Below, in pieces: positions 1,256 through 50,302 of a stretch of DNA of 64,000 nucleotides (positions within the stretch are counted from its first letter, which is position 1; each line of letters opens with the position of its first letter). The notes beneath the pieces were generated by a model. The model did not search any database. It was given only the letters and a program-made list of their open reading frames with translations, and was not told the origin of the DNA. A program made the position numbers and the translations under genes. The DNA is from Limnoperna fortunei. Lineage: Eukaryota; Mollusca; Bivalvia; Mytilida; Modiolidae. The stretch lies in contig OX104120.1 in NCBI GenBank assembly GCA_944474755.1, positions 45,178,067 through 45,242,066 of the forward strand. Direction: 5' to 3'.

Positions 1256-2083
1256 CTATAAAAATGTATAAAAAACAAATAGCAGCAATAAGTTAACTTA
1301 TCCGTTGCAAAATCCGTATTACAAACAAAGATTCCAAAGCGTTTGATGCAACTTAAAAAAGTAAATTTTTTTCCAAATATTTTGTAATTAAAGTTGTTTT
1401 ACTTTCGATGTTTGCAAACGTAAATAAATATTAACATTTCTTTCGTTATTTATATTCTATTTTGATATTTAAATAAGAAATAACTTAATATTAATATTGT
1501 GAAAAGGAGAAAGCAAAACAACTTGACTAACGAAAAGATTATCAAATTGCATCATAATATATAAGATAAATAAATGTAGATGTGAAACAAACTTTTGAAT
1601 GACTAACATCCGAAACAAAATAATTGCTAAAGTTTAACCTGTCCCAAAAATATATTACTTTATCAAAATATGTTATGTATAGATATAATAAGTATCCGTT
1701 GAGATGGCATTATGTACATTAAAAAGAAAATGACGTGTATGTTGAAGTGCTTTTAACAAATTGATTGTAAATTGATTTTACACTAAATTCGTAAAAAGCC
1801 TTTTTTATTCGTTCCATACTATTTACGTGAATAATTATGCTGCTTCTATATATTATATATTTACTATTCGCTCAATAAGGGCAAATAATCTTCTCAATTT
1901 TACGAGATATTAGTATATTTATAAAAATTAAAAACACTTTTCTAGGATTTATATTTAAATTTGATACCGTGTAATAACTATTTTTTGTCAAATTAGAGCT
2001 AGAAACAATAAAGCAGTTTGGTAATTGTTTTTCTGAGAAAATGACCAAAACATTTTTTGTATAAAAGTAAATGCAGTTATTAC

Positions 2084-4589: not shown

Positions 4590-5010
4590 CTGAAAATACA
4601 AAATAAATGAACTAAAATGTTGTCGAGAGAATATATGTCTGGTTGAAACACTATCCGGTAGAGCAAGTTATAACTCGTGCAAAAAATTTAAAAATCGGTC
4701 TACAACCGTGTGAAATATGTTAACACTTTGATGTAAAAAATAAGACTTCTATGCAGTTTGGGCTCTAAATTCTATACTAAGCGGCTTAAAAATCGTTAAC
4801 ATTATACTTGTTGCAAGAATAAACATACAAATGCGTGAGTACATTTATGTGTCATTTTTCGTCTGAACATTACGTTTATTATCGTGAAGATTTTGGTTTC
4901 AATAATTTTCGATCACATTTTGTTTCTAAAAAAGCTACTGATGAAATAAACTTAAAAAATCAATATGCGATTAAACGATAAGCATATGTATAATCATTGT
5001 AAGTACTTAC

Positions 5011-18047: not shown

Positions 18048-21000
18048 TTAGCGTTCTTTTAATTCTGTTTCCGGATTATCAACTTGTTTTTTATATGTTA
18101 TATCGTCTTCATTAACTTGTTTTTCATTCTCATTTTCAATTTCAAGTTTATTATATGATATATAGTTAATGTCGTTTTCATTTTTTCTTTCACCAGAAAA
18201 CGTTTCATTTAGAGGATAACCATCCAATAGATTAACCTTAACATTTGGGTCGCGGCCTTCTTCGTGTGTTGTTTCCTTCTGTGCAACTATATCTGAATAG
18301 TTTTCGTTGATATCGTCGACGGTCTTCTTTTTTGAAATTGTTTGTTTGAATGTCTCCTTAATGGGTGGCAAACTTTTCGTTGTTAGCTTCCTTTTTTTCT
18401 TTCGAGATCGTTTCTTTCTGTATTCGTCATTTTGTCCAAGTACTGAATTTATTGAATCGTCGTCAACTGTTATATCTGTTATTTTCCTGTTGTCTTCGAC
18501 ATTGTTTACAGGTACTAAAAGTTTTGGATCATCACCAACTGTAATATCTGAAGTTTTGTCGCTAAGTTCTTCAGTGCGGTCTTTTTTGTCATTTGTCATT
18601 CCACTTATTCGTTTATTGCTTTGTTCCTTTTTCTCATTATAAATATTGAATAACGTCGTAACTATGCAGATAATCTGAAAATTACCACCATAACATAATT
18701 ATATTTACAATGAAGTTATTTGATAAAAGTTATTTAAGTGAAATGCAAATAATATTTGTATCAATTAAATACATCTGTCTGTCATTATTTACAAAGATCA
18801 TCACCTATTAATCAACACCTAAACTAATGTTTTTAAAGAAATTAGTAATGTACGGATTAAAAGCAACACAATATTGTAAGTTTTTATTTACCTGTGATCC
18901 TTCTTGCTTATGTAACCCTTCTTACTATTTATTTTTATGTTAATTTTGTTGCTACGGATACTGCTGTTACATGTATTTTACAAATGTGCCGCACTGTATA
19001 TAAGCGGTTACAAATTTAACAGTTTCTTATTATCAGAATTATGTAATCATAAGTGTGTATATTATTGTTTAAATGAATGAATACTTAAACAAATATTGAT
19101 TTCTTTGTTATAACATACCTGTGACAACATAACAAATGCCGTTATGACGAAAAATGAAATGCTGAATTCGTAAAGTCTGGTCTTGATAGCTTCATCACAG
19201 ACCTGAACAAATATAATTGTTGAATAAAATTTCCGAAACTATGAATACAACGGGAAGACTAATACAACGTGTGAGGTTCGACGTAAATCTGAATTTGAAA
19301 TTTCTACTGCAAAACATTATGATTTTACTATTCCTAATCAGCAATTTACCAGCATGTGTCCCAAACAGACGCGCTAATATCTCAAAACAAACAAATATGT
19401 TAATTTAGAATTTGTAGACAGATAAAATTCTGAAACAAGCACATGAAATTCTTTAAAAGCAATGTCTGGTAAAAAATATTATTGATAGCAAAATAAAGCA
19501 TAACGTATCACTTTTTCAGTTTTAAAACGAGTTGCACGAGTTTCGTAATTTACCAACATTTAAATGACTATGTTATAGAGGTGATGCAAACGGAATAATA
19601 TTTAATTGCTTTTAAAGATATCTAAAATAAAAAATATCTACTGACAAGTCAACAAATATTTGCACCCGACCAGTGTACCTACATAACTGAATGAACATGA
19701 GCATCACAAGAACTAATACTTTTCCGAAGCTTCATTACGAATATTAATATGAATCAGTGGGAAATATGAGTATCTCGTACGTGCACATACATGCACACAC
19801 AAGTGTAGAGGCAAATGCCTTTTTTATTCAGTCAATTCTGCAATGAATATGTCATTCATTATTAAATATAGAATAAGAAGCTGGTTGCATTTCATCTAAT
19901 TTCATTGACAGTCTATGCTAGTAAGAAAAATGTCGCAGGCACAACAATTTTAACTATTAATTTCATCTACGGGTAAAAAACCTACATGCATGTACATGCA
20001 CCAGAGAACAAGGTTCCAAATTTTTTTACCAAATAAAACGAATAAATCTTTGATTTCCTTGTTCTTTAATGTAAAATTGGATTTACAATTTATTATGTTC
20101 CATGATATAAAACAAATAGCAGATTACTTTTGTATTATAAAGTAGAAAACATTTTATTTTAACAATTTCAAATGCATTTTCTTAACTGTTTACGACACAA
20201 CTAAGGACAAAGAACCATACGACGTGCGCCAACCCAATTGAAACACCTGTCAAAAATACATTGCTGACTTTCACCGTGAAGACTAGCTTCCAACCAAATA
20301 AAGACGTGTCGATAAATCGCAAAAAAAATTTGAAAGTTTAGTAAATTACAAATTAACTAATTAAAGAAGCAAACACATGTTTTTGGATTTGAATATAATA
20401 ATAAGTAAGATCTTCGTTCAATATTGTTTCGATCGAGTTTAACAAGAAAAAATGAAAATATTATTGTTTTTTTACAAAAGCTATGAACTTTATAACTTAC
20501 AAGAAGTGTCAAAGCGCCACCAAATACACCCGTCGAAAATGTTGGTGAATGGTTGACAATCTTGACAGAGGGGTGTGTGCATGTATTAAGTTGCATGAAT
20601 CTTTATAGCCCAAATGAAACCAACCAATTTATACTTAAGAGTTATGGGCTATTTGCAGAATGTCAATTATATCACATGAGCCTTATGCTACTATTATGGA
20701 TTACAGAACACACAATTGATTGTAAACGTGTAAACAAGTCTTCTGTTGATGGTCAGAACAGGCTGGAAGGTGAATCTAGCAGCTTTTTGACCATTTAAGG
20801 GCTAGATGGTTATCAGATATTATGCTAATAAATATTTTCCCCAACTTTCATGAAGATTTGACAACAACTGTTGAGTGAGGGAGCGGAAATTGCAGTGAAC
20901 ATTTCCGCAAAGGGGGGGTCCATTATTACGGTGTTCCCATTTTCGACGGCCATTTAAAAAGCAAACATCAATGTAAGCATCATACATAGACTTATTCATT

Positions 21001-24000
21001 CTGTTTTTATTCTATATACTTTTTTTAAAAAAACCTCTAACATGATAATCAAGAGAGTTGCGAGGGTATATGAAAAAATATATTGCACTTTCGAGAGACA
21101 TTGACATCTTGTTCCATTGTTTTTACACTCATACTGTTTACATGTTCAATGCACATATTGCAGTCATAATATACATTGTATTCAACTTAAATTTGTGTTT
21201 TTGTTTGATAATAGATGATATTTTTAATGCAAAAACAATAATTTATAATAATGTTATCCTGCTTACACATGGATACTGAACTTACAAGATCGTGGAAGGT
21301 CCCATTTGTCATTGTGCGTGTACAGTCTGTGTTAGTCCTACTGGTATAAGGATATAAAATAGTTTCACTTTTACAGCAGTATATAGGTATTTGTGCAGCT
21401 GACCTATCAGAGGTGGACCACCATTGAGACTCATTAAATGACTGCAGATATGACTCTACCCCGCAACATTGAGCCTTTAAAAGCGTAACATAAAATTTTT
21501 ATAAAACCCGCGTATATTATTATTAATATATATACAACCTATGCTATCAGGCCAACGCATTAGAAACAAATGTATTTAATCAAGACACTCTGCTACCTTA
21601 CGTTATGGTTTACAGCTGCCTTAAAGAAATGTTTTGTTATTGTATTAAAAATCTGGCGAAATTTTTTTAAGAGTTTAGAAAAGTCCACAATCCATGTAAG
21701 TTAAAGAACCGTTTGAAAATGTGCAAAACTCAAATATGTAGATTTTACAAAAGACTATGTTTTGTTCCTACGTGATTAAGACTTCGACCATGTTTAAATG
21801 AAATAAATTCTGTTGGTTTACTTGTCTTTTGATACAGCTGAAATATTACGGTGTGCAGATAAAGCAACAATTTAGTAGATCTTCCGGCAGAGTTGAATTA
21901 AAAAAATATATTTCAAAAACGATAAAACAAATTAGTTTGTACTTATATAATATTAGTGCTACTGAGTTATTTATTAGTTTAGTTATTATTAACGATGCAA
22001 ATAACATGTTAAATACATGGTAATAAACGCAATGGAAGTCATTAAGAAATTTATTGGTACGATTTTTGTACCCACAGTTTAAACTTGTAGGACATGTATC
22101 TTAAACTAGCGATACAGCTAAAATAGTTTTGAAATTTAAAATGAAATCGTGGCTAAAGGCATAAGCAATAAGATAGGCGCAGTACACTTAATCCCGATCA
22201 GAATTAAATTATACTTACACACTTACCTTAATAAACAATGTATTCCATCCGACAGATTTTGTATGCCAATATACATTTTTGTCCAGATAATAGTATTTAA
22301 TCAAATCAGACTTCATTTTGGATGTTATGTACTCTGAGACCTTATAAAATAACAAATATTTGTATTACATGTATTTAGTTTATTAATATTTTAACAAAAA
22401 TGTACACATGAAATCAAAAACACACAGTGAAGGCCAGTTTATAGGAAACCATGTCAAAAGTTTTTTACATGAAATGTTTAACAGCTTCAGACAGAAGCCA
22501 TATACATATATGTAAACTTTCACATGGTCAAAATATGTAGCACATCCAAACCAAGATAAAATTCTTTTCACTGAGAATAACATAATACATTTTTACAATA
22601 TTTCGCACTGTTTACTCATATTACTCTTAAATGACAAGGATTTCCTAATTTTCTATAGGAATGAAAGATAGTAGATATTTAGCCTTAATTTATGACATAA
22701 TTAGCGAAGTATTAACAAGTAATGTCAAAACCCCAAACAAACAAACGGCTCCAGCAATCTTTGATATGGATAGCCGGTTTCCCAGAGAAATGTCGTCCGT
22801 TTTTCCTCTTTATCGACAAACTTGATGACAAAATAATGATACAACTACAACAAGCTGTGAGTGGCGTTCAACTTCAAACAAACAAATGAACAACACGTTA
22901 TATTAATTAAAAAATAATATTATATAAGTTTATCACACCTGAAACATATTCTCGTTAAAATAATAAAATATTGTAATTAAAAATAAAATATTGTATAAAC
23001 ACCTATTAACTAAATGTATAATTATCTTTAATCTCTGATTCAACTTGTTATGAATACTATGAGAAATTAAAGTTTAATTGATTAATTTACGAAACGCATC
23101 TTTCTATAAGATATACAGTACTTGCGCCTATTAATGCAAAACTTTAACTGATTGATAACTGATTGGTGACTGATTAATGAGCACTGATGGATGTATTCGT
23201 CCAAAACATTCATCCATCATTACCTTGATAATGTTCAGCGATCAGTACTGTCAGTCTGATCAGACCAATTTAGAATCTGTCATTGAATATTATTTACATA
23301 ATCCATTCATCTTTCTGTATGTAATAATTACTGAATTTGTAGTATACATTGTTTCATAAGAATACAAATACTTCACTGCGATCTTTCAATCTATTTATCT
23401 TCAATCTATGCATGTTTTTTTTGTAGAAGTGTAGCAATAATAAAATCATTTTATGGAAGATGTTTGAAGAAATTAAAGCTATAAAAATAAATAATAAATT
23501 GCATGATTTATACAAGTAGTCATGTCATATACTTAAAATAATATTTTCAAGATAATCAGAATGTGTTTAAATAACGTGGGATTTTTTAAAATGATTTATG
23601 TCCAATAGTCCATTTTAATAGTGTTAATTTGTACTTACGTGTGAATGAATTACTCCCCACAGTACTACTTGAATAACATTTGATATGAACAGTATTCCAC
23701 TAAATAACATAACCTATAATAATATTTATTATCAAAATTATTTATAAAAATATATACTCTATAAATTCTTGTAGTTACACTACGTTTTAGTTTAAACACA
23801 TTTTAATTGTTCAAATATCCAAATAGGATAACACAGTCTTGTAAAAAGTACGTTACAAAAATACATTTGTAACACAAATTATATTATGTTTGTTAGAAAT
23901 GAACCATAAGACAAAAACAAAACGTTTGATGAAGAATATTCAATGACAAATATTTGACAAAAATATTACCCTTCGTTTTGGTCACTCAGACAAACATGAT

Positions 24001-25585
24001 CTTCAAATGAATAAGATTTTGTGCCGCACAACGAACATATATTAACACATTTTATAAGTGCAATTAGTTAGTACGTTTTTAGAACTGACCAGAATATCGC
24101 GATCAAAATCAGTTTATGTAACTCTGTTTACACCTGAATGAATACTTAAACATTTACTTTTTTGAAACTGTAAATCTTAACAGTATTCATTTTTGTGTGT
24201 AATATGTTTATTGAAAAGCTTGTTTACACTTACCAAGTACAGCAACAAACATCGTTTTATAAACTGGACTGCTGACACTATGTAGGCATATATCCCAAAG
24301 CATAGTGATACAACAGAAAAAGTCGTTACTACTATGTAAAAGTTTTCAATAGATGAACTGAATGACCGACCAGCAATCACTATATCATCAAATATATAGC
24401 CATTGATGTATCTATTTCCAAAAACATCGTCGTATCTTAACTTTAAAGCAACGACCAGTAATCCAAAGTTCATCAGCTTGAAGAAGAATGTGCAAATTGT
24501 CATTTTATATTGATTTTGTTTACTGTGGTAACACCAATAACATGTGCGAGTTAATGAGTTATATTAAAACAAAGTAAAAATAATGTTATTTACAACGCAG
24601 AATTTGAAATATCCATTTTTATGGATATCGATTTCAGCTACAATTGAAAAAACAAAACATGAAATACCGGATTACAATAATAAGTTAAGTTACAAGTAGT
24701 TGTTATGTTCGCAAGGAAATGATGTTGGCTAAGGTTTTGTTAAATATTTAGAGTAGTCCTGTCCACAAGTAGCGACCAAATCAGACAACATGGGAGGTAA
24801 TCTTTTTGCAAAAATAACAATCTTTTAATTTCTTTGTAAATTTAGTCCTATTTAGCTAGGTGTTGTCATGTGTTATAAAAAATCTAAAAAAAACTAAATG
24901 TGAGTCATAAAATTACCTCCCCGCCCCTTAACTACAGTTTTGTTAGGCGGAAGGGGTTTGTTTATGTTTGCTTGAATCGAGTCTCTTGACTTTCGGATCG
25001 TCTTGTTTAGTCAGTTTTCCGATCACTGCTGTTGACTGCTAAACTACTCAAACAAGGGTTTGTTGTACCTAGGTTGATGTTATCTCTCCAGAAGTTCTAT
25101 GGTCGGCACAACGACTTAATTGATCGTTACGGGAAATCAGTGTCTCAAATACGATCTGACATTTTCGCTGAGTCATAGGTAGTGTTTCCTATTCCTGGAT
25201 TTGACTTTTCCCTAGACAAGACAATGAGTAACTCGACGAGTGTCTAATAAGAGGCAGGCACTGCTTACTCGTCCAGTGCACCTGAGTGCACCCATGGTTT
25301 TTATTGGGTTCAAGTTACTCTCTTTCTGTGTTTTATGTTTTTGATTTTTGTCTTGTGTTTGTCTATATTCGGATTTGTAACTGTCCCTTGGTTTTTGGCT
25401 CTTGTTGTTCGATCGCTTTTCTTTTGCTACTTTCTTGCTACATTTCTTAGTACACAGAGGCTTGTTCTCAAACTTTGTTCTACGCAGATATACATGTAAT
25501 TTTCTTAATATGAGTCAAGAATAGATCACTGATACTTACAATTATAACTGTAACAGATGATAACAATAATGAAGTCATTTTCGAT
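18048..25585 (-). CDS. Gamma tetraspanin module with long cytoplasmic tail (C-terminal part of complete gene)
   Basis: Exons are 25540-25585, 24234-24476, 23639-23713, 22227-22340, 21286-21474, 19119-19202 and 18048-18674. The entry exon encodes (R)SKMTSLLLSSVTVII, which continues into LMNFGLLVVAL as helix 1. Exon 2 holds the small loop and helix 2; exon 3 is helix 3. The large loop has SVGWNTLFIK, then AQCCGVES, IPIYCCK, a further DCT and VCDEAIK: six cysteines, with an N-G-T sequon. Helix 4 spans the 84-nt exon and the start of the last exon. The last exon adds about 190 cytoplasmic residues with two 24-residue repeats (DITVGDDP and DITVDDDS cores), a basic run RKKRSRKKKRK, VDDINEN and YISYNKLE. 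The stop lies five codons earlier than in the 56.3 kb copy, removing a DESSL end. Confidence 0.88.
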
Positions 25586-28500
25586 CTACAAAATGTTTGC
25601 ATAGTAATTAATATGACGTCAAATAAAAAAACTAAATGTAGCTTTACAGATTTCGTCATTTTGATATTCTCGTATAGCAAATTTTTTTTCTAAATTAAAT
25701 TAAATTAATCAGCAGATTTCAATATTTCGGGTTAAAAAACAATAAGATACTATACTTTTATGCTTACCGCTTCCAGGTGTTAACGACGAATTGTTTAACA
25801 ACTACAAGTAGAATCAACAATATGTGTTGAGGCTTTTTTTCATTACTTTCTACTGTTTCAGTTTTTTCGTTTTGTTTGGGTACAAATGATGCTGGATGAT
25901 ATATCTGAATTTCTTTATTTACTAATACAGTTCCAACCATCTGTTGAAAACAAGCATACTATGCAGTAGTCATTAGTTCCGTTTTAAATAATTTTAAGCA
26001 AGTACTATACGCACATAATAATTATAGTGTTACAAAGTATTCCGTTTTTACAAAAATTGCAATTGATTAAGACGAAAGAGTAATATATATATTATAAGAT
26101 TTGATTGAAAAGAAACGATAAACCACAAGAGATTTTCATATACACACCTCCAATAGAATCTGCAGAATCGTTACTGCCGAAAACCATCCAATCATCATTT
26201 CGATTCGAAATTGGATCTTGTTTTTACATGTCTGCAAAATATAATTTATCAACATTAACAGCTGGTATTTGAACAGTGCCATAATTCATTATTACAAAAT
26301 TGAATGATGGGACAAGTTTGTGTAATATACATGTTTCTGAATAAGTCCGCCATTGAGAACTTAAAAAATGGAAACAGCACAAAACGCTATGGATGAACTC
26401 TGATAATATGAGGTTTTGAAATGCTGCCCTTCATGTCCTACCATATGTATTTGTTAAAAACCAGTAAAAACTCATAAACATGTAAAAAGGGCTGATGACG
26501 TTTAATACAGCTGTAGCCGATTCTTGTGTAACATCGCGACTCTCATTGTTTTGTCAGCGGAAATTCAGAATTGAAAGATTAGATTTATATGCATTTATAT
26601 GCAAAATTCGTAGATATCTACATTTCTATCGATATGCAGCATTCATAAAATAATGCAAGTAAGAATCGAAAATTAATCTTTTGTACAGTTTGAATATTTA
26701 ATCTGTCCTTAGAGTCAAAATATGTAATATTCAAGCTGGGATGCAGAGATGAGGTAAAATTTTTCACGATTTAATTAAAGAAAAATGAATTATCATGCAG
26801 TAAAGATACTTTACGCAAAAAAGCTCAACAATATCTGGCATTAATAAAATAAAACTTAAGCATCAGCTTTAATTTCAAGACTAAGATTATTCTTTTCCTA
26901 GTCTGACGTCTGATGTAAATCCAAAAATGAATGTGTACTAATGGGGCACATAAGAATACATTATGTATGTAAACAGTCTTCACCAACAAACGCAACAAAT
27001 ATGTCGGCGATTGTAAGAATCTGAAAAAAACAAGGATTAACCTACCATCGTGGCTCCTAGGTCAGTTTACTAACTCTGTTGTGATCCTACATTAATTATT
27101 TCATCATACATGTACATTTTTAATGAGTATCTGTAGTTGTGTTATGATTTGTAAAGGAAAATGCATAGATTTTGCAACAATGCAAGACACGTTAAATTTG
27201 CAGTCTGTATTTAAAATAGTATTGGTATTATATATCGCTTTTATACAGTTATTGTATTTGTCTTCGGTTTTGTTCATGTGGGCTGAAAATAACATTATAT
27301 GGACATAGTTGTAAAGTATACCCAAATCTTGGACTTACTAAGATATATGTATCAATTTCTATTATCTTTCAATGTTATTTTATTTGTTTATATTCTGTAT
27401 TTTCAATTATTTATTTTTTTAAGTGTGTGCATCATTGTATACTGAACGACTACACCATCCGTCCGTATGAAAAGCACCACAATGTATTATGGCGTGTGGG
27501 ACTTAAAGGTATATTAAAAAGTGAATTCATATTGGTATTTATACGTCACCACTGCTATAGATTTTAAACTAAGAGATCATCATAACGTTTTATGATGTCT
27601 ATACCAACACCATGTGGTGTGCATAGTAGCTAATCGGGCATAGGGATCTAATTTGAACGCTGGTGAAATAAAAGCTACAGTTGTGAAATATGCTTTCTAG
27701 AAAAAAGCTTTATTTTCATCTAATCTAATAGAAAATGAAATGTATTAAAAACACAATCAATTATAAGACATGTACACTAAGTGAATCAATAAAATGATGC
27801 ACAAAAATTGCACATCTGTGGCGTTAATAGTTATTTAAATCGTTTACATTTATGATCAAATCTCTGAGTTCCAAAAGATTCATATGTATTCTCAAATAGA
27901 AAAAAGTAGTAAATGAGCGTTGACTAATTTATGTCTCTGAAAAATTATGTATGTCGACAATTGAACGCTGCCAGACCAGCTGTATTTACAATAAGCAGTC
28001 CTAAGACTTTTATTTAATGTAATTAATTAATACAATAACTTGGAATGTTCCTTATTGATTCTATATTAATGTAATCCTTACCGTTGTTCTATTATTACCG
28101 GTTCCGTAGTAAAAGTTTAAGTTATTTAGATTGTCATAAGTTTCCGATGGATATGCAACAATTTCCCTTGCATTTTCGTAACAGAAAATAATACTCCGAA
28201 TAGGATAGGCGGAATCGAATGTGTCGTATGTTGAGTTGACTCCACAACAATCTAGCTGCAAAATGTCAAACAAGATAATTTTATACTCTTTAGGTTGATA
28301 ATCATTTATTGGAATTGTAAGACTTTGTATTGATATATATATGTATACGTTCTACTTGGAATCTCGATGTCGATAATTCATATGATATTTTTTATAGTAC
28401 ACTTTATATTTGTAAAAAAATGTCTTCGTAAGAACTTTCTTATTAATAAAACTAAGAATTTATTTTGAAAGAAATACACAAAAATAATAAATGTAAATTT

Positions 28501-31500
28501 AATCTGAGTTAAACATAATTTTAAAATAGTAATAACATTTATATTTTGATGTTTTCGTCAATGCTTTCTTTTTCCACTGAGTAGTGTGAATATAAGCCTG
28601 TTAATCGTTCAGCTTGGCTATGTAAACATCTACATGTACATTGTAAAATAATGAATATATACAACAATTAAACTTACCGTTTGTATCATTGTGTTCCATT
28701 CTGTAGTTATTGGCCAGTGTTTGTTGTATCCAGTTTGTTCTATATTCATTTGAATCTGTAGATCTTCGTTTATCTGCAGAAATTATCACTTAGAAATTTG
28801 AATTACACAGATTAAGATCTAAATCTATTTAAACCCTTATATTTTGTATACACATGGATCATAAGAAAATGGGAATATGCCAAAACAAAAACAATTTCTA
28901 ATATGTTCAATTATTGTAACATTTGAATATTATTTTTGTTATTTAGAGGGTTTAAATATGTCATCATCAGTTCTAATTAAGTTGTCAAAGATGCAAACAT
29001 ACAGTAATCAAATGTTTCAAAATAAGTTTCTTATGTGTTCACTGCGACTGCTGCTTGCATACTTCTAACAAGCGAACACATTTGTATGTGAACTATCTAT
29101 TGAGGGACGTATTTTCACTCTACATAATTCGTATGATGTAGTTTATTAATGAGTTGTTATTTGATTCTCCTGGCTTTTCTTGAAAGGTGTGGCAGTAAAG
29201 AGGATTGACGTTGCTTTAAATAAACTAGAATCTCTGAAAAGCTTGTATCGCTCACCTGTCTTACAAAAAGCTTTTTTAAGAGACATAACTTTTCTAGTAA
29301 ATTTTGATATTAATTTCTAAAGATTTTATGTGAAGACGCTGTTTTTATGAACGTTGCAATGTTAAGTTTCCAATCAACAGCAATTTGTAGGACAGTTTTT
29401 GAGGAGAAATCTTTTAAGGTTATCTCATAGTTTACTATGTTAAGTGATGTTCCATGATGGTAGCAAACTTGTATTTTGGATCAAAATAACAAACTCATAA
29501 TTAGTAGCGACCATCTGAGGTACATTTATATAATATCAGAATCCCTTCCGTCAAGCGATTTTTTGAGGAAACGAATTTTGAAATTTAAGCAAATCAGAAC
29601 GCATTTGCAGCTCTAGTAGTCATGTTGAAGTTACTGATTGAATAACGCAAAATAATAAGATTACTATCCTCGATTCATTTCGGGATTATTTGGTTTAATT
29701 GCGTGGAACAGTTTCGGAGAAGCTATTTATGTGTTTCCCATAGGGTCCTATGTTTAGCTGTGTTCTACGATGGCAGCCATCTTGGATTTTGGATCATTAA
29801 CAAACTCAAACTTTTTATAGGATCATCTAAGGTACATACTTATCCAACTTTCATTTCTTCAAAATTTGACTTCATTGTGTGGAATAGTTTCCGAGAAATG
29901 TCGCTGCTCCATGTGCAAATAACCAAATATGCGTCCCGAATTTTACCAGTATCCCTCTTTTGATCACAAATTCATCTAATTGTTGTCATTGCTTTTATAT
30001 TTTAGTAAATGCTTTGTGTTGCTTTACATATTTCATGTTAACATGTAAAAAATCAGTTTTAATTATGTACTATGATTTTATGCATGCCAGAACTTATATA
30101 GTAATCAGCTGATTTTACATATTTATGTGCAAAGCAGTTTTACTACATGTACTTTTACTTTTTTATCCATTTTAGTTGTGCTTATACGTAAACCAGCTGA
30201 TTTTATGTAACTTTATACTGTGGAGGTATCTTGTAACTTGTGCTTAGTCCTCATAACTTAGCCTGCTTATTTTATGTCAAAGTGCTTATAACTACTAACT
30301 TGCTTGTTTTTTTTAATCTGCTGATTGTACCATTCAAACAAACAAAAACAAAACTTAATTGCTGTTTGTATTGTTTTAATGTCTTATAATGTATTTATTG
30401 GGTCAAAAGCTCTTTGGAGCTTATGTTATTTGCTGATAATGTCATGCCGAAGTTTTCTTATCTTATCTTATCTTATCTTATCTAAGAGGGGCCTCGTTGG
30501 CCGAGCGCTCAAGGAGTTCGTCTACTATTGATCACGTGGTCGGTCAACACTGAGATTGCGGGTTCGATTCTCACTGCGGGCAGGGTGTACTCGACTCCTA
30601 TCTTAATTGACAAGGATTGCCAGTTTTCCAACCGCAGGTCGTTGGTTTTCTCCGGGTACTCCGGCTTCCTCCCCAATAAAAACTGGACGCCATGATATAG
30701 CTTAAAAATTGCTGAATGTGGCGTTAAAAACCATCAAACAAACAACAACAAACTTATCTAAGAAGTTGTTTGTATTTTTTTTCAAAAGGGTCCAATGTTA
30801 AACTAAGTCATGCAATGGCGGCGATCTTGGATTTTAGGATCGGCACAAAACACTCAAAATTGGTAGAGGACCATCTAAGGTACAATTCCGCAATATTTCA
30901 GGTGAGCTAAAAAGCGGCCTTCGGTAGACACGACGACAGTCAATAATAAACCCGTCTCGAGTAATCGATGGCATAGCCAACTACGGCTAACAGTTGTGAA
31001 ATACAAATAAATATTGGATATTAATAATAAATATTGCCACCAACACGTGTTTTACTTTTTTCATCGTATATACAAATGTCAAAAAGAATATTTAAGGACT
31101 AGCGACTTTGCATGGTCATCTAATTAGTACTTTATGACACATAGTTATATGTTTAGCTATAATATGCTATATTTGTTTATTCTTTTAAACACATCAATAG
31201 AAAAAAAATTTCTTTGCGATGAAAAATAAAAAAATGTATTAAATGTTTTGCAACATTTAGGGCAATTTAACTTCATGTCCTCTGTAAATGTTGATTAGTT
31301 TGAAGCATACTAAAATTAAGTAAGACTGATAGCAAATAATTTGACTAACCTTCACTTGTAAAATAATCCATATTAAAACAGCTGCAAGTCTTGGTATTAG
31401 TAACATCACTGAAACAACTGTACTCTAAAATAAAAACGATAGTAAAGCTGTAAGTGAAATATATTATTCTATTCAAACGGTATAATTTATGTTTAATATA

Positions 31501-31731
31501 TTTGACTTTGGTCATAAAATAAAACAAAATGTCCCAGGTTTCTCGGTCCCCCGATTTTTCGAACTATTTCTGTCGGTTCCTTGAGTTCGAGCCATCGAAG
31601 TTCGACTGTATGTGTTTTCATATTAAACACACAAAGTACATAAACACTTTCTCATTCTTAAAATATGTGTTTATTATTTCCAGCAGGCAAAGATAGTCCA
31701 ACTAAAAATACTTATTGCACCAAGTATGTCC

Positions 31732-31795
<64 letters not shown>

Positions 31796-34700: not shown

Positions 34701-37700
34701 TATATTTTAAATGTCCGTAGTCTATTTCAAGAAGAGGGTCTAAGTAAGAGGCCGACCTCTTGTGCATAGACAATAACAGTGCAAGACACTAATAAAAAAT
34801 ATACAAAATAGGTATCTGATGTTGATCTACCTGCCTTCCTTTGTTTACAGACGTGAGTTATTGTAAGGACTCGACAGTCGTTTAATATCTGAGTGATTAA
34901 AACCACGTTTTAGGTTTGCATTATAAAATACTAGACCTAATTGTTTTTACACTTGTTAGTTTGATTAACTTCACAAAAGATTTTCGATGATGGTTTATTT
35001 TTAGTAGTATTGGTCATATACATTTTCTACTTTCGTTTTAAATATAGAAAAAAAACTCAAACATGTCACAGTTGACGTATGTAGTACAGCTTTAAATAAT
35101 TATGCATTCTAAAAATCAATTACTTTTTTATTTTAAAACATGTTATATTTCGTATGCCTTTTCACGCTTTACTACAGATTTCTATATATTCGCTTTAACT
35201 TTTTAACTTGTGCAATGTATTGTTAGTGTCGTCATTTTACATTGAGATTTACCTTTGGAGTTTAAGGGGCTAAAGGGGTGGTCTTGTTTAAATGACTCGC
35301 ACGCAAAAGAAGTGTAAGATAGCACTAATGGTTATTAACGTATTTAAATTTTAAAGGCTCTTAGTGGTACTTTTTGTACTTTACCTGCATATTTATGCAA
35401 AGACAATAAGTTTTTTCCAAACGTATGAAATACAGACAGTAGTATTCCACTCAAATAATTAACTCTCTGAAGGTTAAATTATAGGGCCCTATTGTAAAGT
35501 TTTAATTCAATGCAAAAAGTCAGTGCAGATCGTCTCTCAGGTTCGAACCAAATAAAGCCTCAAATTCTTATCAATGGCCTCGTCACATTAGTTGTCGAAA
35601 ACAATAACGTTTATTTTCTATACGCTATTAACACTATGTTCAATTAATTGTGTTTGTAACCATTAAAAGTTGATGGATCTATAGAAACGCCGTAAAAATA
35701 TAACTCGGGATAAATCATTGTATTCAGCATACATGTAACATAATTATGTTGCTTGTTTGTTTACCAATGAACGAAGTTCACTCAAAAACATCTTAATTCT
35801 TACTAGGTAAATTCATTAACGACACGAAAAAATGTTAATACAATCTGTCAGCGATTTCTTATTAAAGTTCTTTTATCCAAAACTACTGAGATTACTAATT
35901 TCCATTGAGTATTACTTGCATTCGTTAAATAAACGAAACCAACACGTTACTGAGACACTTTAAATTACAACTAAACATTAAGAAAAAGGCACAGCAGGCA
36001 TTACGAAACCCTTAAACTTAGGTGCGATTATTTATTAATATTTTTCAAACAGTAAAACCAAATTGGCAACCATAGCTGCACAAAGTTTGTAATAAAAACA
36101 AATTGTATTTATCACATCAATGAAGATGATGATACATACATTTTACATAGAGGTTTTATACTTTTTTCGAGGGGTGGGGGAAAATGTTAAAGTTATTTTA
36201 TCCTAGAACATAAAAGAAATAACCACCCATATATACATGTAAAACAAACGATGAACTGATCAAATGCAATCACTAAGGTTCTATATTATTCATGTTTGTT
36301 GGGCGGATGTATTCTTCAGCATTTATTTTAAGATCTATTGTCAGTCATCATTCTGTAAATATTCAGTCACGAATCAAGCAAAGTGTTTCGTTTAATTGTT
36401 CAATTTCTTATTATTATCGACTGATTTTGTGTTCAAATGTTTTGTTTTGTTTTGCGTTGCGCATTTTCAAGTTATAAATGATCAGATTTTTGTATTTATT
36501 TGTATTAGATGTCATCATGTTATCAGTATTCTGAACTTACCTTTTAAATGATTCCTTGATGAACACTGTAAAGTTCCGAAACATACCAAAGTGCATTGTA
36601 CACAAAAGAAAATACTTAGTGTTTGAAATCCTTTCCGATATCTTTTTAACTTCCATTTTTCGGTATATATACTCAATGACAACAATAGATAATGCCTACA
36701 ACAGTAACATAAACATTTGCTTGTTTCGCAGACATTACATTAATTGAAAGATATGCACAGCAACCACGCGGGGTCTTAAATTTTAAATTAATATAAATCA
36801 AGCTAAACCAATTTAACAGGCATATTTAACCACAAAAACAAAGTTTTATGTTACATGCTTACACAAAACAATAACAATGTGATGTTCTTAAAGTAAATAA
36901 TACAGTAATCTGAACTTTCGTACCTACACAGAGAGATTACTGCAGCGTGTGAAACAAAAAACTATAAATTAGAATTCTGAAATAGCTAACGAAGAGAAAT
37001 CTTAATTGAATGTTTGTTTGATGTGTTTAACGCCACTTTAGGCGATTTTTCAGCTATATCATAGCGTCCAGTTTTTATTAAGGGTGGAAGCCGTAGTACC
37101 AGGAAAAAACGACCGACCAGAGATGGGAAAACTAACAATCCTTGTCAATTAAGATTGGAGTGGAGTACACCCTGTCTGCAAAGTGAATCAAACCCGCAAT
37201 CTCAGTGTTGACAGACCACGTGATCAATAGTAGACGAACTACCTTAACCACTCGGCCACCGAGGAACCTGAAATCTTAATTGAACTTATCGCAGAAATGA
37301 TGCCGTTTTGATAATAACATTTCGGTTTATGTTAGTTTTTAACTAATGCCTTAATATCAAAATACCACATCAATTAATTGCATATAGTATTGGCATCTAC
37401 ATAAATATATACCTGACACATAATGCAAGTTACTAGTAAGCCGAAATATGTATGTAGATAGCTTTCTAGTTTCTCCATGTAAACATCATAACAAGCCGAG
37501 TATTGATATGCTCTAACAGCACTGCATCCAAGCTGAAAGATTAGACAAAGTAATGGAAGAAAAAGAAATTTCTTTTATGCCTTTTTTCCTACACATTACA
37601 GGATTTCGAATCGTGACTACATTAATTATTTTATGTTTTATTTAATGTCAAACCACAGACGATGGGTATTTACGCCTACACCTAGGCATGTAAGGGTATT

Positions 37701-40700
37701 GTCATCACTCTGAGACCTCTGCAAAATTGAAGAAAAAGTTGTTTACAATGCTAATTGGTTTATCTTAAATTAAAAAAATGTGTGCAACTTTTGAAATACA
37801 TTAAAAGAACTATTTTATGATATTTTCAAAAACACATTTTCTGATTTGAGAAGTCATTTTCATGAAAACAATATTTACAAAGCAAGCATGAAACTGCAAA
37901 AAACATGTTTGTTAAAGCTTGTTTGTCATTTAACCGCTTATAAAAGAAAATAAAAATAATTTCATTTGCCGTATACAAAATTATACGCTGTTTCTATATG
38001 TTCAAACGAAACAGTTTTAAATTTTTATTCGTACTGCGTTCTTGTTAAGAAAAGTCATATTATCAATCATCCCAAGAAAATAACACTTTATTAACGCATT
38101 TTACAATTGTATTAAGATGTTGCTGTAAACTGTTTAAAGATGCGAGTGCATTAAAAAGCTTGCAGTTTGACAATGTGGTGCCCAATTTCTTTTCATCTAC
38201 TCTGAACATCAAAAAAATGTAAAATAATGGACATAAAGATACTTAATAAGTTTGAAAGAGTTAATGCTTTAAATACAGAAGCAACATTTTGGTGCTTACT
38301 ACAAGGTCTGTTATTCAAACTAATTATGTGCGTCATATATTTCACAGAAGCAGACATAAATATGTGGTTTGCGTTCTGTTATTTGTATAGTAATTTCGGT
38401 TGATGGAATAGTTGATTTATGTCCAAGGGTCACTATTTAGTAAAATAGTTGATAATTTAAGTATAATATTATATCTATTAGGTAATACGCCTTTAACGGC
38501 TCGTTGATTTTTTTTTCTAAATGCAGAAAGTATGCGCAAAATACGGTCATTCGAACATGTAGGTAAATAGAAAATTGGTTGTAAAATTATATTTATGGCT
38601 CCAATTGCCAATTTGCCTCTAAAATTTCTACTAACTTTATTGTTTACATTGGTACAAATTTTGTATCCATGTTTAAACACATGTAATTTACCTGATTAAT
38701 GAATGCTGGAAATATGTTATATTGATATTCCCATGACAGTCTCAAGTAGGCGTAATACTGACCAGAATCGTAAAAGTACATAAAGGCTCTAGAATAAGTA
38801 TAAAGCCTTTCTGCCAAGTCGAATCTCTAAAACAAATAATTTCAATTTAAGCTATTATACACCATCAAAAAGTTAAGATTATGTTTAGCTGTTCAGAGTG
38901 TTTTTAATTTTAAAATATATAAACAAAGCATGAACTAATAAACAATGTGACAAATAATTTGCATTTACAAAGCTTAGTCACTAATAATGTATAATAAAGT
39001 TCAAATATTGCAAAACTTTTATTGTACACTTTCATGCATGCACATTGTTCTACATGTAAAATTACCTCTCCGTAGATGATCGCAAATAAAACAATATATA
39101 TAATGTACACTATAATCAACATAGAGCTCATCACAACGTTCTGAAATAAGAAAAAAAAAGATAAGTGTGTATATTATTAAATGGTTTGTATATGTTTTTC
39201 AGTGTGACTGAAACAAATTACTTTGTACTCCTGAGTGTTTGTATAAAGTAACTCAAAATAAAGTGAAAAGTAAATAAAAGAACAAAATCAAAGTCTTAAA
39301 CAATTACAACGGGAAGCCAAGTTAAATTAATTAAACACTTACCCATCTGATATTAAGGGCTAAACTAACAATGTCAATAACAAGATTACAGACAGTGACA
39401 AATCGGATCAAGATAAAGATTGATTGATTGATTGGATGTCTTCTTTACGTCCAGCGAGCAGTATTTCAGCTATATTCAGGACGGGAACAAGTAAACAAAC
39501 AATAAATCAACGGAAAATGGAGGTGGGATGGGTCACAGGGAATACAATTTTGACTGCCACTGGAAAAGTATCGAGTTTTGGGTAGGGTTGAAAAATTTAG
39601 CCTTTTGTAGCGGCTACAAACAAATATATTAAAAACGAAACAAACCACCAAAAACACGGCCTATTTTCTTAGTATGAAACCGACATAAATGTGTTTGAGG
39701 GGTCTCAACTTCCATTGAAAAAAGAAACTCTATTCAATCTGAAAACATAATGCTTATTTTATTGTAAAAATGTAAATAAATCATTTCGTTCCAAGCTGAT
39801 GAGAAAGAGATGTATATGACATATACAGTAGACGGAACAAACTTATTCGGAGTTATTGTCTTTCTAACCGGCTCCAAAAGCCAAGTTTAACACCCAAGTC
39901 TATTCCAGGATTAAGACCGATCAGTTCAAGGACCGTAAGCAACAGATTACGAACGCAAAGCATCCATTTACCAACCACGTTACAAAGCGTAACTACATGC
40001 AGCAGTGTTTGAATGGCAGATGTTTTTGTGCCCTGTAACATTTTTTAGTAATTGGAATAAATTTCACCTTTGACCTTATGGAACACAGTACCTTTTATTT
40101 GCGTTTTCTGTATTTTACTCGAAACATTTGCGCTTTTTCTTTTCCTTTAGTATATAAATTCACTTCTTTAACGTTTAATTTTTATTGTAGCTTACATTCT
40201 TTGTTTATTTCTTGTTTTGATAATATTATTGTTAGGTCGTGTATATATACAGAGGACTATTTAATGTCGATTTTGTGTACATAGTAGCAAATACATTAAA
40301 GTAAATTAGCTAAGAAGTGCTTACAACAGTCAGCATATATTTATTTTTCCTAAAAGCTCCATACAATCCAAAGATTCCTGTTATTAAGTCTAGTACAAAT
40401 ACGCCAATCAAGGAAAACACAAGACAAAATACAGCTGTACCATATGGTATGCCATTAATGTTGTAGTTGTTTACCACTCTGATGACGGTACTGTCCAGTA
40501 TATCGTCACTAGCCTTTATATAAATTGACATTATTACAAAGCCAAATGTTAGCGCCTGTAAGAAATTAAATAACTTACATTATATTGTAAAGAATGCAAC
40601 ATTTCATTCAAATTCGTTAGAATAATACTGGAGTTGCGAAACAAACAACTTAGTATGGTATTCTGTACAGAAAGTCTATTTCATTTCTTTATGTAACATA

Positions 40701-49700: not shown

Positions 49701-50302
49701 TATCACCATGGGTCTTTCCTTTTAATGTTTTATAGTATACACCATTGCAATTTTCATCGTTATTCTTATAAACCTATACATTTGTACAAAATATAATGTA
49801 CAATGTAAAATAATAGTGTATACTTATATGCCATTTTTATTTGCTAATAAAATCCGTTCTGCGCATAAACAGTTATGTTAACCAAATTGAAGTATGCAAA
49901 CAAATCTATTCGAATATTTATTAATTTATTTATTAAAATTGTGTCATAATCAATTTGTTTACCAGAGGCTTTTCTATATAATAAACCTATTGCTACTCGG
50001 CAACGATAAACAAAACTATTTATTTACTGATTCTATCAAAGGAGGTCAATATTTTTGTTAATTCTGAAAATCTCATTCATTTACCGTGTGCAAGATACAC
50101 AGGTGATAAACTAATAGTGTTTGAATGTTTGACTTTAATAAATTATACAATTACTTTAAAATACTTCATTGTCATGGAATTAAATTATAAACTTGAAACA
50201 AAATTAAACCTGTGTTGACAAATAACTTACCCTAGTTATAAGAGATGTTGTCATTAAGATGTTCACCGATATGGTAAAACGTCCTCGTTGTATTTTCGGC
50301 AT
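18048..50302 (-). CDS. Three-module (12-TM) tetraspanin concatemer, complete gene
   Basis: I read this as one 20-exon gene encoding three fused tetraspanin modules, 1014 residues in all: alpha about 1-262, beta 264-555 and gamma 557-1014, with an arginine codon split across each module junction. Exon lengths sum to 3045 nt, divisible by three, with no internal stop. The start is the ATG at 50302, the first Met of a basic leader (MPKIQRGR) before helix 1. The stop is TAA at 18048-18050. Module junctions are 36541 to 34075 and 25768 to 25585; both join a phase-2 exon to a 46-nt exon. Tetraspanins normally carry four helices in 200-350 residues and organise membrane microdomains, so a triple fusion is unusual. 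The product should sit in the plasma or an internal membrane with the gamma tail cytoplasmic. The alternative is three adjacent genes sharing splice-compatible ends; each module could stop or restart separately. No transcript was seen. Confidence 0.72.
24980..25440 (+). mobile_element. Reverse-transcriptase 3' fragment, decayed
   Basis: It shares the block gttgactgctaaactactca onward and the complete 3' non-coding region with the element at 61846. The frame is broken by small indels and by a stop where the longer copy is open. It lies between the 46-nt gamma entry exon and gamma exon 2 of the complete gene, antisense. Confidence 0.75.
25768..34075 (-). CDS. Beta tetraspanin module of the complete gene (middle)
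   Basis: Exons are 34030-34075, 32137-32367, 31350-31424, 28678-28773, 28082-28255, 26148-26231 and 25768-25940. The 46-nt first exon begins with one base completing an arginine codon, then SKLMFVTVAIKLSSV, the first half of helix 1. The second exon holds helices 1-2 and the small loop, and the third is helix 3. The large loop carries W-N-T followed by LDCCGVN, a clear CCG signature, plus one Cys in IIFCYEN and one in TCKNK, giving four cysteines, and an N-R-T glycosylation sequon. Helix 4 is its own 84-nt exon. The last exon encodes a tail (KEIQIYHPASFVPKQNEK) and a hydrophobic patch (HILLILLVVVKQF) before the split arginine codon that joins gamma. An internal Met at SKLM could serve as an independent start. 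Confidence 0.88.
30457..30483. repeat. (CTTAT)n short tandem repeat
   Basis: Five or so pentanucleotide units directly abut the SINE at 30487 and provide part of its target duplication. Confidence 0.9.
30487..30752 (+). mobile_element. tRNA-derived SINE, near full length
   Basis: The head resembles a class II tRNA (Ser/Leu type) with an A box (TGGCCGAGCGCTCAAGG) and a B box (GGTTCGATTC). A shared body follows (aaggattgccagttttc, ctccgggtactccggcttcc, aaaactggacgccatgatat), then a tail rich in aac/aaaca. The duplicated target cttatctaag flanks it at 30477-30486 and 30753-30762. It lies in an intron of the beta module, antisense to the gene. Confidence 0.88.
31732..31794. repeat. (AAT)n microsatellite
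   Basis: About 21 uninterrupted trinucleotide units, intronic in the beta module of the complete gene. Confidence 0.97.
32778..32816 (+). ncRNA. Hammerhead ribozyme core, first copy, altered core
   Basis: This has the same layout as the copy at 33412: stem II GTCT/AGAC, GAAA, stem III CGC/GCG and the GTA triplet. The seven-base core reads ATGATGA instead of CTGATGA, changing the conserved C3, which pairs with G8 in active hammerheads. It is predicted to be inactive or weak. Confidence 0.55.
33412..33450 (+). ncRNA. Hammerhead ribozyme core, consensus intact
   Basis: The core is CTGATGA (33412-33418), then stem II GTCT/AGAC with loop TGAAA, then GAAA (33432-33435), then a short stem III CGC/GCG with a seven-base loop, then the GTA cleavage triplet (33448-33450). 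The A35-U49 closing pair is present (last two digits of positions). Stem I is not convincing by eye, so activity is uncertain. Confidence 0.65.
34265..34420 (-). mobile_element. Reverse-transcriptase element, 3' end, minus-strand fragment
   Basis: This is the reverse complement of the same 3' block (gacgagtaagcagtgcttgcc, cctctaatta, gagtaactcga). It lies between alpha exon 6 and the beta entry exon of the complete gene. Confidence 0.6.
36541..50302 (-). CDS. Alpha tetraspanin module of the complete gene (N-terminal)
   Basis: Exons are 50231-50302, 40325-40555, 39066-39140, 38692-38826, 37413-37532 and 36541-36695, all with GT/AG ends. Exon 1 carries the start Met and the first half of helix 1. 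Exon 2 (77 codons) completes helix 1, holds the small loop (SDDILDSTVIRVVNNYNING) and contains helix 2. The 25-codon exon 3 is helix 3. Exons 4-5 form the large loop, and helix 4 runs across exons 5-6. The family CCG motif is absent: exon 5 begins LGCSAV and the loop shows only two cysteines. The pre-loop W-E-Y...F pattern still fits tetraspanins. Exon 6 adds a basic cytoplasmic linker ending ESFK plus a split arginine codon leading into the beta module. Intron 1 is 9.7 kb against 1.6 kb in the other copy, inflated by repeats. Confidence 0.85.
37011..37270 (-). mobile_element. tRNA-derived SINE, minus-strand copy
   Basis: This is a reverse-complement member of the same family: the ggtggccgagtgg-like head is at its high-coordinate end and the tgtttgtttga tail at its low end. 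It has a perfect 14-nt target duplication, aaatcttaattgaa, at 36997-37010 and 37271-37284. It is inserted between alpha exons 5 and 6 of the complete gene, in the sense orientation. Confidence 0.88.
39419..39575 (+). repeat. Interspersed repeat fragment (attgattgattg family)
   Basis: Starts with attgattgattgattgg, then tacgtccagcgagcag, tcaggacgggaacaag and a later tgactgccactgg. A diverged relative lies at 55630-55795. Confidence 0.55.
40950..41195 (+). mobile_element. Reverse-transcriptase element, 3' end only
   Basis: It matches the last codons and 3' region of the element at 61846 (attcctgga, ggtgtctaattagaggc, gggcactgcttactc, cccatggtttttattggg). It lies in alpha intron 1 of the complete gene. 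Confidence 0.65.
44091..44489 (-). other. Unrecognised hydrophobic open frame inside alpha intron 1
   Basis: A 132-codon minus-strand frame includes FDAWTDWFALLIIILSAVYS and other hydrophobic runs. I do not recognise a family, there is no counterpart in the short intron 1 of the other copy, and no splice sites were resolved. It could be a fragment of an unrelated membrane protein gene, a repeat product or chance. Confidence 0.25.
45339..45608 (-). other. Unrecognised exon-like open frame inside alpha intron 1
   Basis: The 89-codon minus-strand frame has a balanced composition (HWHLGRADSIAFCIGYNV, then IDRNLKPQSEHCPHW) unlike the AT-rich surroundings, and ends near a possible CCTGTAATA donor. 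I do not recognise the protein. An opposite-strand frame overlaps it and may be its shadow. Confidence 0.25.
46428..46610 (+). mobile_element. 5'-truncated SINE with target duplication
   Basis: This copy starts within the body (gcagggtgtactcgactcc) and runs to the caaacaaatcaaacaa tail, lacking most of the tRNA head. The duplication acatcctgacat lies at 46416-46427 and 46611-46622. This points to 5' truncation at insertion rather than later deletion. It lies in the large alpha intron 1. Confidence 0.85.
47472..47640. repeat. Imperfect ~20-nt minisatellite (first copy)
   Basis: Units resemble gaactaggaactacgaatgt, repeated with substitutions. The array recurs within the second tandem copy at about 48762-48908, one unit shorter. 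Confidence 0.75.
48762..48908. repeat. Imperfect ~20-nt minisatellite (second copy)
   Basis: Counterpart of the array at 47472, carried along by the tandem duplication; one gaactaggaactacgaatgt unit fewer. Confidence 0.75.

What the first reader, a model, noticed from the sequence alone, without database searches (positions are those of the whole stretch)
18048..50302. Three tetraspanins fused in frame into one 12-helix protein
The last alpha exon (ends 36541) and last beta exon (ends 25768) both stop in phase 2 at GTAAG donors. Each is followed by a 46-nt exon preceded by a pyrimidine tract and AG, which starts in the matching phase and encodes RSK plus half of helix 1. Exon lengths sum to 3045 nt without an internal stop. 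Typical tetraspanins are single four-helix units; I know of no described triple concatemer. Such a chain could fix the stoichiometry of a tetraspanin cluster.
Basis: partly seen in the sequence, partly recalled or inferred. Interest (0 to 1): 0.9.

Follow-up and report, generated by a model that had tools for sequence, protein, structure and literature searches.

The report
Three tetraspanins joined in one gene
In DNA likely from a mussel relative, twenty exons join in frame into one gene that would make three linked tetraspanins (normally separate four-helix membrane proteins) as a single twelve-helix chain; matching three-part proteins are annotated in several Mytilus mussels, so this is likely a naturally fixed tetraspanin cluster.

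Summary
Twenty minus-strand exons (50302 to 18048) with GT-AG introns give 3,045 nt, 1,014 codons and no internal stop. Each unit-to-unit join is a phase-2 intron leading to a 46-nt exon. Evidence from outside the window supports the fusion. Two searches together found 14 proteins, all labelled Mytilus (five species); 9 of 14 have both junction peptides (mostly W-x-R-S-K/R). Where a homologue carries the 46-nt exon, 4 of 11 (beta) and 7 of 10 (gamma) have no methionine in it, so those units cannot start there with ATG. Stretches missing from Mytilus models end at the window's exon ends at 29 of 32 boundaries. Beta and gamma each have six phase-0 introns, as ancestral tetraspanins do; only the junction introns are phase 2. 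In a unit tree alpha, beta and gamma separate cleanly, so the triple was likely built once and duplicated as a block. Against it: no RNA was seen, the homologues are themselves gene models, and downstream copy C is broken. Alpha lacks the CCG signature, so it is tetraspanin-like. Function (pre-assembled 1:1:1 cluster) is inferred. My paper searches showed no fused tetraspanin. Verdict: real and unusual; a new variant of a known kind.

The parts
50231..50302 (-). alpha exon 1, start codon and first half of helix 1 (MPKIQRGRFTISVNILMTTSLITR)
   Evidence: similar N-terminus in Mytilus homologues and in copy C at 11947-11876
40325..40555 (-). alpha exon 2 (rest of TM1, TM2)
39066..39140 (-). alpha exon 3 (TM3, 75 nt)
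38692..38826 (-). alpha exon 4 (large loop)
37413..37532 (-). alpha exon 5 (2-Cys loop without CCG, start of TM4)
36541..36695 (-). alpha exon 6 (end of TM4, amphipathic linker, ends phase 2 at GTAAGT)
34076..36540 (-). alpha-beta junction intron, phase 2, 2465 nt; six AATAAA hexamers
34030..34075 (-). beta exon 1, 46 nt, junction peptide (R)SKLMF... and first half of TM1
32137..32367 (-). beta exon 2
31350..31424 (-). beta exon 3 (TM3, 75 nt)
28678..28773 (-). beta exon 4 (loop)
28082..28255 (-). beta exon 5 (CCG; Cys 4 and 5 of the CC-CC-C-C pattern absent)
26148..26231 (-). beta exon 6 (last loop Cys, start of TM4, 84 nt)
25768..25940 (-). beta exon 7 (end of TM4, linker, ends phase 2 at GTAAGC)
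25586..25767 (-). beta-gamma junction intron, phase 2, 182 nt, no AATAAA or ATTAAA
25540..25585 (-). gamma exon 1, 46 nt, junction peptide (R)SKMTS... and first half of TM1
24234..24476 (-). gamma exon 2
   Evidence: copy A 63444-63202
23639..23713 (-). gamma exon 3 (TM3, 75 nt)
22227..22340 (-). gamma exon 4 (loop)
21286..21474 (-). gamma exon 5 (CCG, CC, C)
19119..19202 (-). gamma exon 6 (last loop Cys, start of TM4)
18048..18674 (-). gamma exon 7 (end of TM4, long charged tail, stop codon)
   Evidence: copy A 56940-56317
56317..63444 (-). copy A, upstream neighbour: gamma exons 2-7, open and with splice sites; gamma exon 1 not found in the window
1..11947 (-). copy C, downstream neighbour: alpha 1-6, beta 1-5, gamma 3-5 found (cut by the window end); beta 6-7 and gamma 1-2 not found; alpha-beta join out of frame

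Best explanation
The 20 exons from 50302 to 18048 join in frame into one 3,045-nt reading frame that is predicted to be spliced and translated as a single 12-helix chain of three tetraspanin units, likely working as a pre-assembled tetraspanin cluster of fixed 1:1:1 make-up. Shown by sequence: each window unit has four hydrophobic clusters and one large loop; beta and gamma have six phase-0 introns and (gamma; beta in Mytilus) the CC-CC-C-C cysteines of CD63-like tetraspanins; the units are linked through phase-2 introns into 46-nt exons whose first codons are conserved. Inferred origin: a tetraspanin gene triplicated in tandem; a donor arose at the end of the last coding exon of units 1 and 2 and an acceptor at the front of the next unit's first exon, removing stop and start. 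Inferred topology: N-terminus, both amphipathic linkers and the long charged gamma tail face the cytosol, the three large loops face outside. Inferred working: the linkers hold alpha (no CCG, probably structural), beta and gamma side by side, so partners are recruited as a set instead of by free lateral association, with the gamma tail as cytosolic anchor. The whole triple was probably then duplicated as a block.
For: Reading frame rebuilt. Homologues: 5 proteins with the fusion as query, 38-42% identity, coverage 99-100% in four and 63% in P0004; 12 with the profile; union 14, all labelled Mytilus (five species). Both junction peptides in 9 of 14; no Met in the 46-nt exon in 4 of 11 (beta) and 7 of 10 (gamma) homologues that carry it. 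Stretches missing in Mytilus models end at window exon ends at 29 of 32 boundaries. Beta and gamma introns lie in the same alignment columns, all phase 0; alpha shares four of these columns and its first intron is three columns off, next to a gap; the two joins are phase 2. Ancestral animal tetraspanins have six phase-0 introns, CD63-like ones CC-CC-C-C (PMC2650405, passages). Tree: alpha, beta, gamma each on one side of a branch, 100/99, 99/97, 96/96. Exons a6+b1 between copies B and C: pS 0.57, pN 0.25. Beta-gamma intron 182 nt, no poly(A) hexamer. PF00335 in 3 stretches in P0001 and P0002, 2 in the window protein and the five others scanned. Best 18-mer of each of 12 linkers in six proteins is in the top 0.1-8% for amphipathicity.
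Against: No transcript or peptide was examined; the homologues are predicted models of one genus. 5 of 14 lack at least one junction (P0004, P0010, P0012, P0013, P0014). Copy C joins alpha to beta out of frame, with none of the five GT sites near the exon end in phase 2, and lacks beta 6-7 and gamma 1-2. The alpha-beta intron is 2.5 kb with six AATAAA, so early termination there is possible. Exons b7 and g1 are poorly conserved (19-28% and 20-40% identity), and the linker codons are under weaker constraint than the helix exons (pN/pS 0.44 against 0.29). Window alpha (21.4 bits) and gamma (28.1) alone are below Pfam's cut-off of 32.1. The AlphaFold model of P0001 was too poor (pLDDT 42, pTM 0.32) to test the arrangement. 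No functional data.
Confidence: 0.8

Rival explanations
1. Three separate neighbouring tetraspanin genes: each 46-nt exon is a first coding exon with its own start codon, and alpha and beta end at the TAA that lies in the GTAAG just after their last exon.
For: Unspliced reading of both last exons ends at once in ...KR-stop. In the window both 46-nt exons contain an in-frame ATG.
Against: A phase-2 GTAAG donor after these bases gives TAA at once by construction. The Met is absent from the 46-nt exon in 4 of 11 and 7 of 10 homologues, while RS at the join is kept in 10 of 11 (beta; P0003 reads KS) and 10 of 10 (gamma). The beta-gamma gap is only 182 nt, with no poly(A) hexamer. Models with both joins exist in four labelled species (californianus, coruscus, edulis, galloprovincialis).
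Confidence: 0.06
2. A triple gene that also makes shorter products: retention of, or polyadenylation in, the alpha-beta intron yields an alpha-only protein ending ...FKR, and exon skipping removes units in frame.
For: Immediate stop after both donors, six AATAAA in the 2.5-kb intron. Mytilus models P0004 and P0013 lack a5, a6 and b1 together, and P0010 lacks b6, b7 and g1 together, which keeps the frame. P0012 (473 aa) ends after the beta loop; P0014 runs from alpha into ankyrin repeats.
Against: AATAAA density in that intron (2.4 per kb) is inside the range of the other introns (0 to 4.7). The incomplete models may be annotation errors. Compatible with the main reading.
Confidence: 0.3
3. Readthrough or annotation artefact: adjacent genes share occasional readthrough transcripts that annotators merged, without a functional fused protein.
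For: All homologues found are predictions from one genus; some look faulty (P0009 carries an extra stretch, P0014 joins ankyrin repeats).
Against: The RS join and the 46-nt exon are conserved; per site, silent positions of a6+b1 changed about twice as often as replacement positions between copies B and C (pS 0.57, pN 0.25; by codons 24 changed the amino acid and 14 did not); 29 of 32 missing-stretch boundaries match exon ends; alpha, beta and gamma types stay apart in the tree.
Confidence: 0.08
4. The window's locus is a decaying member of the family, with the working triples elsewhere.
For: Neighbour copy C is broken; window beta lacks two loop cysteines.
Against: Copy B is open through 1,014 codons with all 19 introns GT-AG; the two absent cysteines are those that the vertebrate CD53 also lost (PMC2965184, passages), which would be one lost disulphide (pairing recalled, not tested).
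Confidence: 0.08

Closest known systems
Uncharacterised / 'TSPAN9' / 'Tetraspanin' proteins of Mytilus (P0001 LOC127706050, P0007 LOC127706052, P0003 LOC127706053 of M. californianus; P0006 LOC143083940 of M. galloprovincialis; P0002, P0008, P0009 of M. coruscus)
   Same: Same alpha-beta-gamma order, both junctions; a tail after gamma
   Different: 34-42% identical to the window protein over the aligned part; betas with a complete loop have six cysteines, the window's four; no description of them turned up in my paper searches
CD63-like tetraspanins (animal group with introns 1-6; PMC2650405, passages)
   Same: Beta and gamma: six phase-0 introns each, CC-CC-C-C loop (gamma; Mytilus beta)
   Different: Those are single four-helix proteins of 200-300 aa; here three units share one chain, and alpha has one intron fewer and no CCG
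CD53 (PDB 6wvg, a GFP chimera)
   Same: Only solved structure that matched window beta by sequence at E up to 0.1 (E 1.9e-5); CD53 too lost cysteines 4 and 5 (PMC2965184, passages)
   Different: Single unit; weak similarity; the shared loss is probably convergent, since Mytilus betas keep six
Peripherin-2/ROM1 heterodimers and oligomers (PMC9645710, passages)
   Same: A defined tetraspanin hetero-assembly with amphipathic C-terminal helices
   Different: Assembled from separate chains and disulphides, not one polypeptide
Non-conventional tetraspanin isoforms (PMC6773723, abstract and passages)
   Same: Departure from four helices in tetraspanin genes
   Different: Those have one to three helices by splicing, not twelve

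Membership tests
Tetraspanin family, beta unit | PF00335 above gathering score | tested here: met
   64.1 bits against 32.1
Tetraspanin family, beta unit | CCG motif and at least four loop cysteines | tested here: met
   CCG, 4 Cys
Tetraspanin family, gamma unit | PF00335 above gathering score as a single unit | tested here: not met
   28.1 bits against 32.1, E 1.9e-6, model positions 10-220 of 225
Tetraspanin family, gamma unit | CCG motif and CC-CC-C-C loop | tested here: met
   CCG, 6 Cys
Tetraspanin family, alpha unit | CCG motif and at least four loop cysteines | tested here: not met
   Window: 2 Cys, no CCG. Homologues: no CCG in 14 of 14; 2 Cys in the 11 with a complete loop, 3 models (P0004, P0011, P0013) lack that exon
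Tetraspanin family, alpha unit | PF00335 above gathering score as a single unit | tested here: not met
   21.4 bits against 32.1, model positions 9-104 only
Tetraspanin family, alpha unit | Tetraspanin gene structure (phase-0 introns at the family's places) | tested here: met
   Five phase-0 introns, four in the same columns as in beta and gamma, the first three columns off beside a gap, one of the six missing; blastp of alpha against beta E 3.5e-4
CD63-like tetraspanin group | Introns 1-6, all phase 0 | tested here: met
   Beta and gamma six each; that these are the numbered positions 1-6 of PMC2650405 is my inference, as I could not see its figures
Tetraspanin family, whole protein | Single four-helix protein of 200-300 aa | tested here: not met
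   Reading frame of 1,014 aa; 18 overlapping hydrophobic peaks in the window protein, read by eye as 4+4+4 clusters
Tetraspanin family, whole protein | Termini in the cytosol, loops outside, tetraspanin fold | tested here: inconclusive
   AlphaFold model of P0001 too poor (pLDDT 42)
Tetraspanin family, whole protein | Assembly into tetraspanin-enriched domains | not testable with these tools
   needs cell biology

The most novel reading that the evidence does not exclude
A natural, conserved tetraspanin concatemer: mytilid mussels carry a multi-copy family of 12-helix proteins in which a degenerate, CCG-less tetraspanin (alpha) and two CD63-like tetraspanins (beta, gamma) are one chain, a hard-wired hetero-trimeric tetraspanin cluster of fixed order, stoichiometry and cytosolic tail.
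Probability: 0.65. Interest if true: 0.8.

Novelty: new variant of a known kind. Interest (0 to 1): 0.68.

Why it matters
How tetraspanins pair, in what numbers and in what order, is hard to study because they associate loosely in the membrane. A natural chain that fixes three different tetraspanins in one order would be a ready-made, purifiable unit for structure work and a test of whether neighbour identity matters. It would also be a clear case of three-way gene fusion in which the stop of one unit and the start of the next were lost to a pair of splice sites.

Tried and rejected
Search for stand-alone beta units: none among 7,994 scored candidates, but P0012, which contains most of a beta and has a fitting length, was not returned either, so this null says nothing. 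The profile search also missed P0001 and P0003, which one search had found; both searches scored only the top 8,000 or so candidates. Recall is limited, so absence outside Mytilus is not shown.

Premature ends: AATAAA in the alpha-beta intron is as frequent as in other introns, so it neither supports nor excludes termination there.

Copy C as a second full triple: rejected. None of the five GT sites from 5042 to 5006 is in phase 2, and beta 6-7 and gamma 1-2 were not found by tblastn at E up to 10.

Pfam on six short window frames found nothing at E 0.01; the tRNA search found none.

Papers: ten searches over the open-licence library; nine of them (all but 46) sought fused, tandem, multi-domain or mussel tetraspanins. 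Titles and abstract starts in the listings showed no fused tetraspanin; one search listed 20 of 30 Mytilus-and-tetraspanin papers and I read passages of one (PMC7772429), so a mention inside another cannot be excluded. Subscription papers and preprints were not searched.

Full report
What is there. On the minus strand, 20 exons from 50302 to 18048 give 3,045 nt and 1,014 codons with no internal stop. All 19 introns are GT-AG. Alpha (exons a1-a6) and beta (b1-b7) end in phase 2; the 46-nt exons b1 and g1 start in the matching phase, and the arginine codon at each join is split by the intron. In the window protein 18 overlapping hydrophobic peaks fall, by eye, into three clusters of four, and no linker passes the threshold used; in P0001 the first alpha helix also stays below it.

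Is it one gene? The strongest evidence is from other species. With the fused protein as query, 5 proteins were returned; with the profile of these and the window, 12. The union is 14, all labelled Mytilus: californianus, coruscus, edulis, galloprovincialis, trossulus. Alpha matches 14, beta 13, gamma 12 of them at E up to 1e-3. The alpha-beta junction peptide is present in 11 of 14 and the beta-gamma one in 10 of 14; 9 of 14 have both. The other five are P0004 and P0013 (no a6 and b1 in the model), P0010 (no b7 and g1), P0012 (ends within beta) and P0014 (alpha, then ankyrin repeats).

Separate starts were tested directly. In the window both 46-nt exons have an in-frame ATG, so the separate-genes reading is open there. 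Among homologues that have the exon, 4 of 11 (beta) and 7 of 10 (gamma) have no Met in it, while RS at the join is kept in 10 of 11 and 10 of 10 (counts exclude P0014, which aligns there without being homologous, and the window itself). The gap between beta and gamma is 182 nt and holds neither AATAAA nor ATTAAA; the alpha-beta gap is 2,465 nt and holds six AATAAA, within the density of other introns.

Exon ends were tested too. Thirteen homologues (all but P0014) were scanned for missing stretches of 20 residues or more before residue 806; 16 were found in six of them, and 29 of their 32 ends lie within 2 residues of a window exon end, against about 0.12 expected per end. This includes the 3' ends of b1 and g1. 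It suggests that the Mytilus genes share the window's exons.

Copies in the window. An upstream copy A shows gamma exons 2-7, open with splice sites; a downstream copy C shows alpha 1-6, beta 1-5 and gamma 3-5, where the window ends. C has the same 46-nt exon b1 (4589-4544) with acceptor and donor. Between B and C, a6 (first 129 nt) plus b1 give pS 0.57 and pN 0.25; a1-a3, b2 and b3 give 0.52 and 0.15 (a crude count on few sites, silent sites near saturation). The linker is thus constrained as coding sequence, but less than the helix exons. C joins alpha to beta out of frame, with no phase-2 GT near the exon end, and four exons were not found, so it is probably broken. This counts against a general rule that every copy in the array is a working triple.

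History. In a tree of 37 units (13 alpha, 12 beta, 12 gamma) each type lies on one side of a branch, with support 100/99, 99/97 and 96/96 (midpoint root, and the P0003 rows have long branches). The simplest reading is one fusion followed by block duplication. The best Mytilus matches are 50% (alpha), 44% (beta) and 38% (gamma) identical, while the window's own copies are 64-73% identical to each other, so the window likely comes from a mytilid outside those five species, or from an unannotated cluster; I could not identify the species.

Family. Beta passes Pfam's tetraspanin cut-off alone; gamma and alpha do not. Of eight whole proteins scanned, P0001 and P0002 show three tetraspanin stretches, the window protein and five others two. 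Beta and gamma have six introns each in the same alignment columns, all phase 0; alpha has five, four in those columns and the first three columns off beside a gap. A study of tetraspanin introns reports six ancestral phase-0 introns in animals and a CD63-like group with introns 1-6 and CC-CC-C-C (PMC2650405, passages). Beta and gamma fit it. Window beta lacks cysteines 4 and 5; a survey says that CD53 lost the same two (PMC2965184, passages), and CD53 is the only solved structure that matched beta by sequence (6wvg, E 1.9e-5). Alpha has no CCG in any row, and two loop cysteines wherever the loop is complete, so I call it tetraspanin-like.

How it may work (inference). In six proteins examined, the best 18-mer of both linkers is strongly amphipathic, in the top 0.1-8% of all 18-mers of its protein (best of several windows), usually followed by W/F-x-R-S-K. 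Peripherin-2 and ROM1 have amphipathic C-terminal helices at the membrane surface and form defined hetero-oligomers from separate chains (PMC9645710, passages). I propose that the linkers lie on the cytosolic face and hold three bundles side by side, so that a cluster of fixed make-up is delivered as one chain, with the gamma tail as anchor. The loop exon of alpha (a4, 26-37% identity to Mytilus) is less conserved than its helix exon a2 (51-62%), and b5 (29-43%) less than b2 (41-58%, leaving out P0014, which has no beta), but gamma does not follow (g5 34-47%, g2 30-37%), so fast loop change is not a rule of the whole protein. In mussel gills 'tetraspanins' are among genes raised after Vibrio exposure (PMC7772429, passages), but the passages do not say which, so I draw no conclusion from it.

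What is not shown. No RNA, protein or localisation. The AlphaFold model was unusable. Absence outside Mytilus is not shown. The homologues have been in databases under neutral names; the listings of the papers I could search show no fused tetraspanin.

Noticed in passing
window 33406-33449 (+): Type I hammerhead ribozyme (RF00163, 34.7 bits against 34 gathering) in the intron between beta exons 1 and 2; by eye a similar sequence lies near 32772-32816 in the same orientation, probably one repeat element in two copies.
   Followed up: partly
window 46752-49070 (+): Two pairs of direct repeats, spacing 1,190 and 1,269 nt, 99-100% identical over the 300 nt compared, inside the long first intron of alpha: a recent tandem duplication or assembly duplication.
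   Followed up: partly
P0014 (M. edulis, labelled ANKRD6): Gene model that joins a complete alpha unit, at the position of the fusion donor, to ankyrin repeats: an annotation chimera or another use of the same donor.
   Followed up: no
window 28082-28255 (-): Window beta and copy C beta lack cysteines 4 and 5 that 9 of 9 Mytilus betas with a complete loop have, the same pair as lost in CD53.
   Followed up: partly
window 61816-62478 (+): Open frame of 221 codons without a Pfam match at E 0.01; identity unknown.
   Followed up: partly
window 31729-31812: Run of (ATT)n microsatellite inside a beta intron.
   Followed up: no
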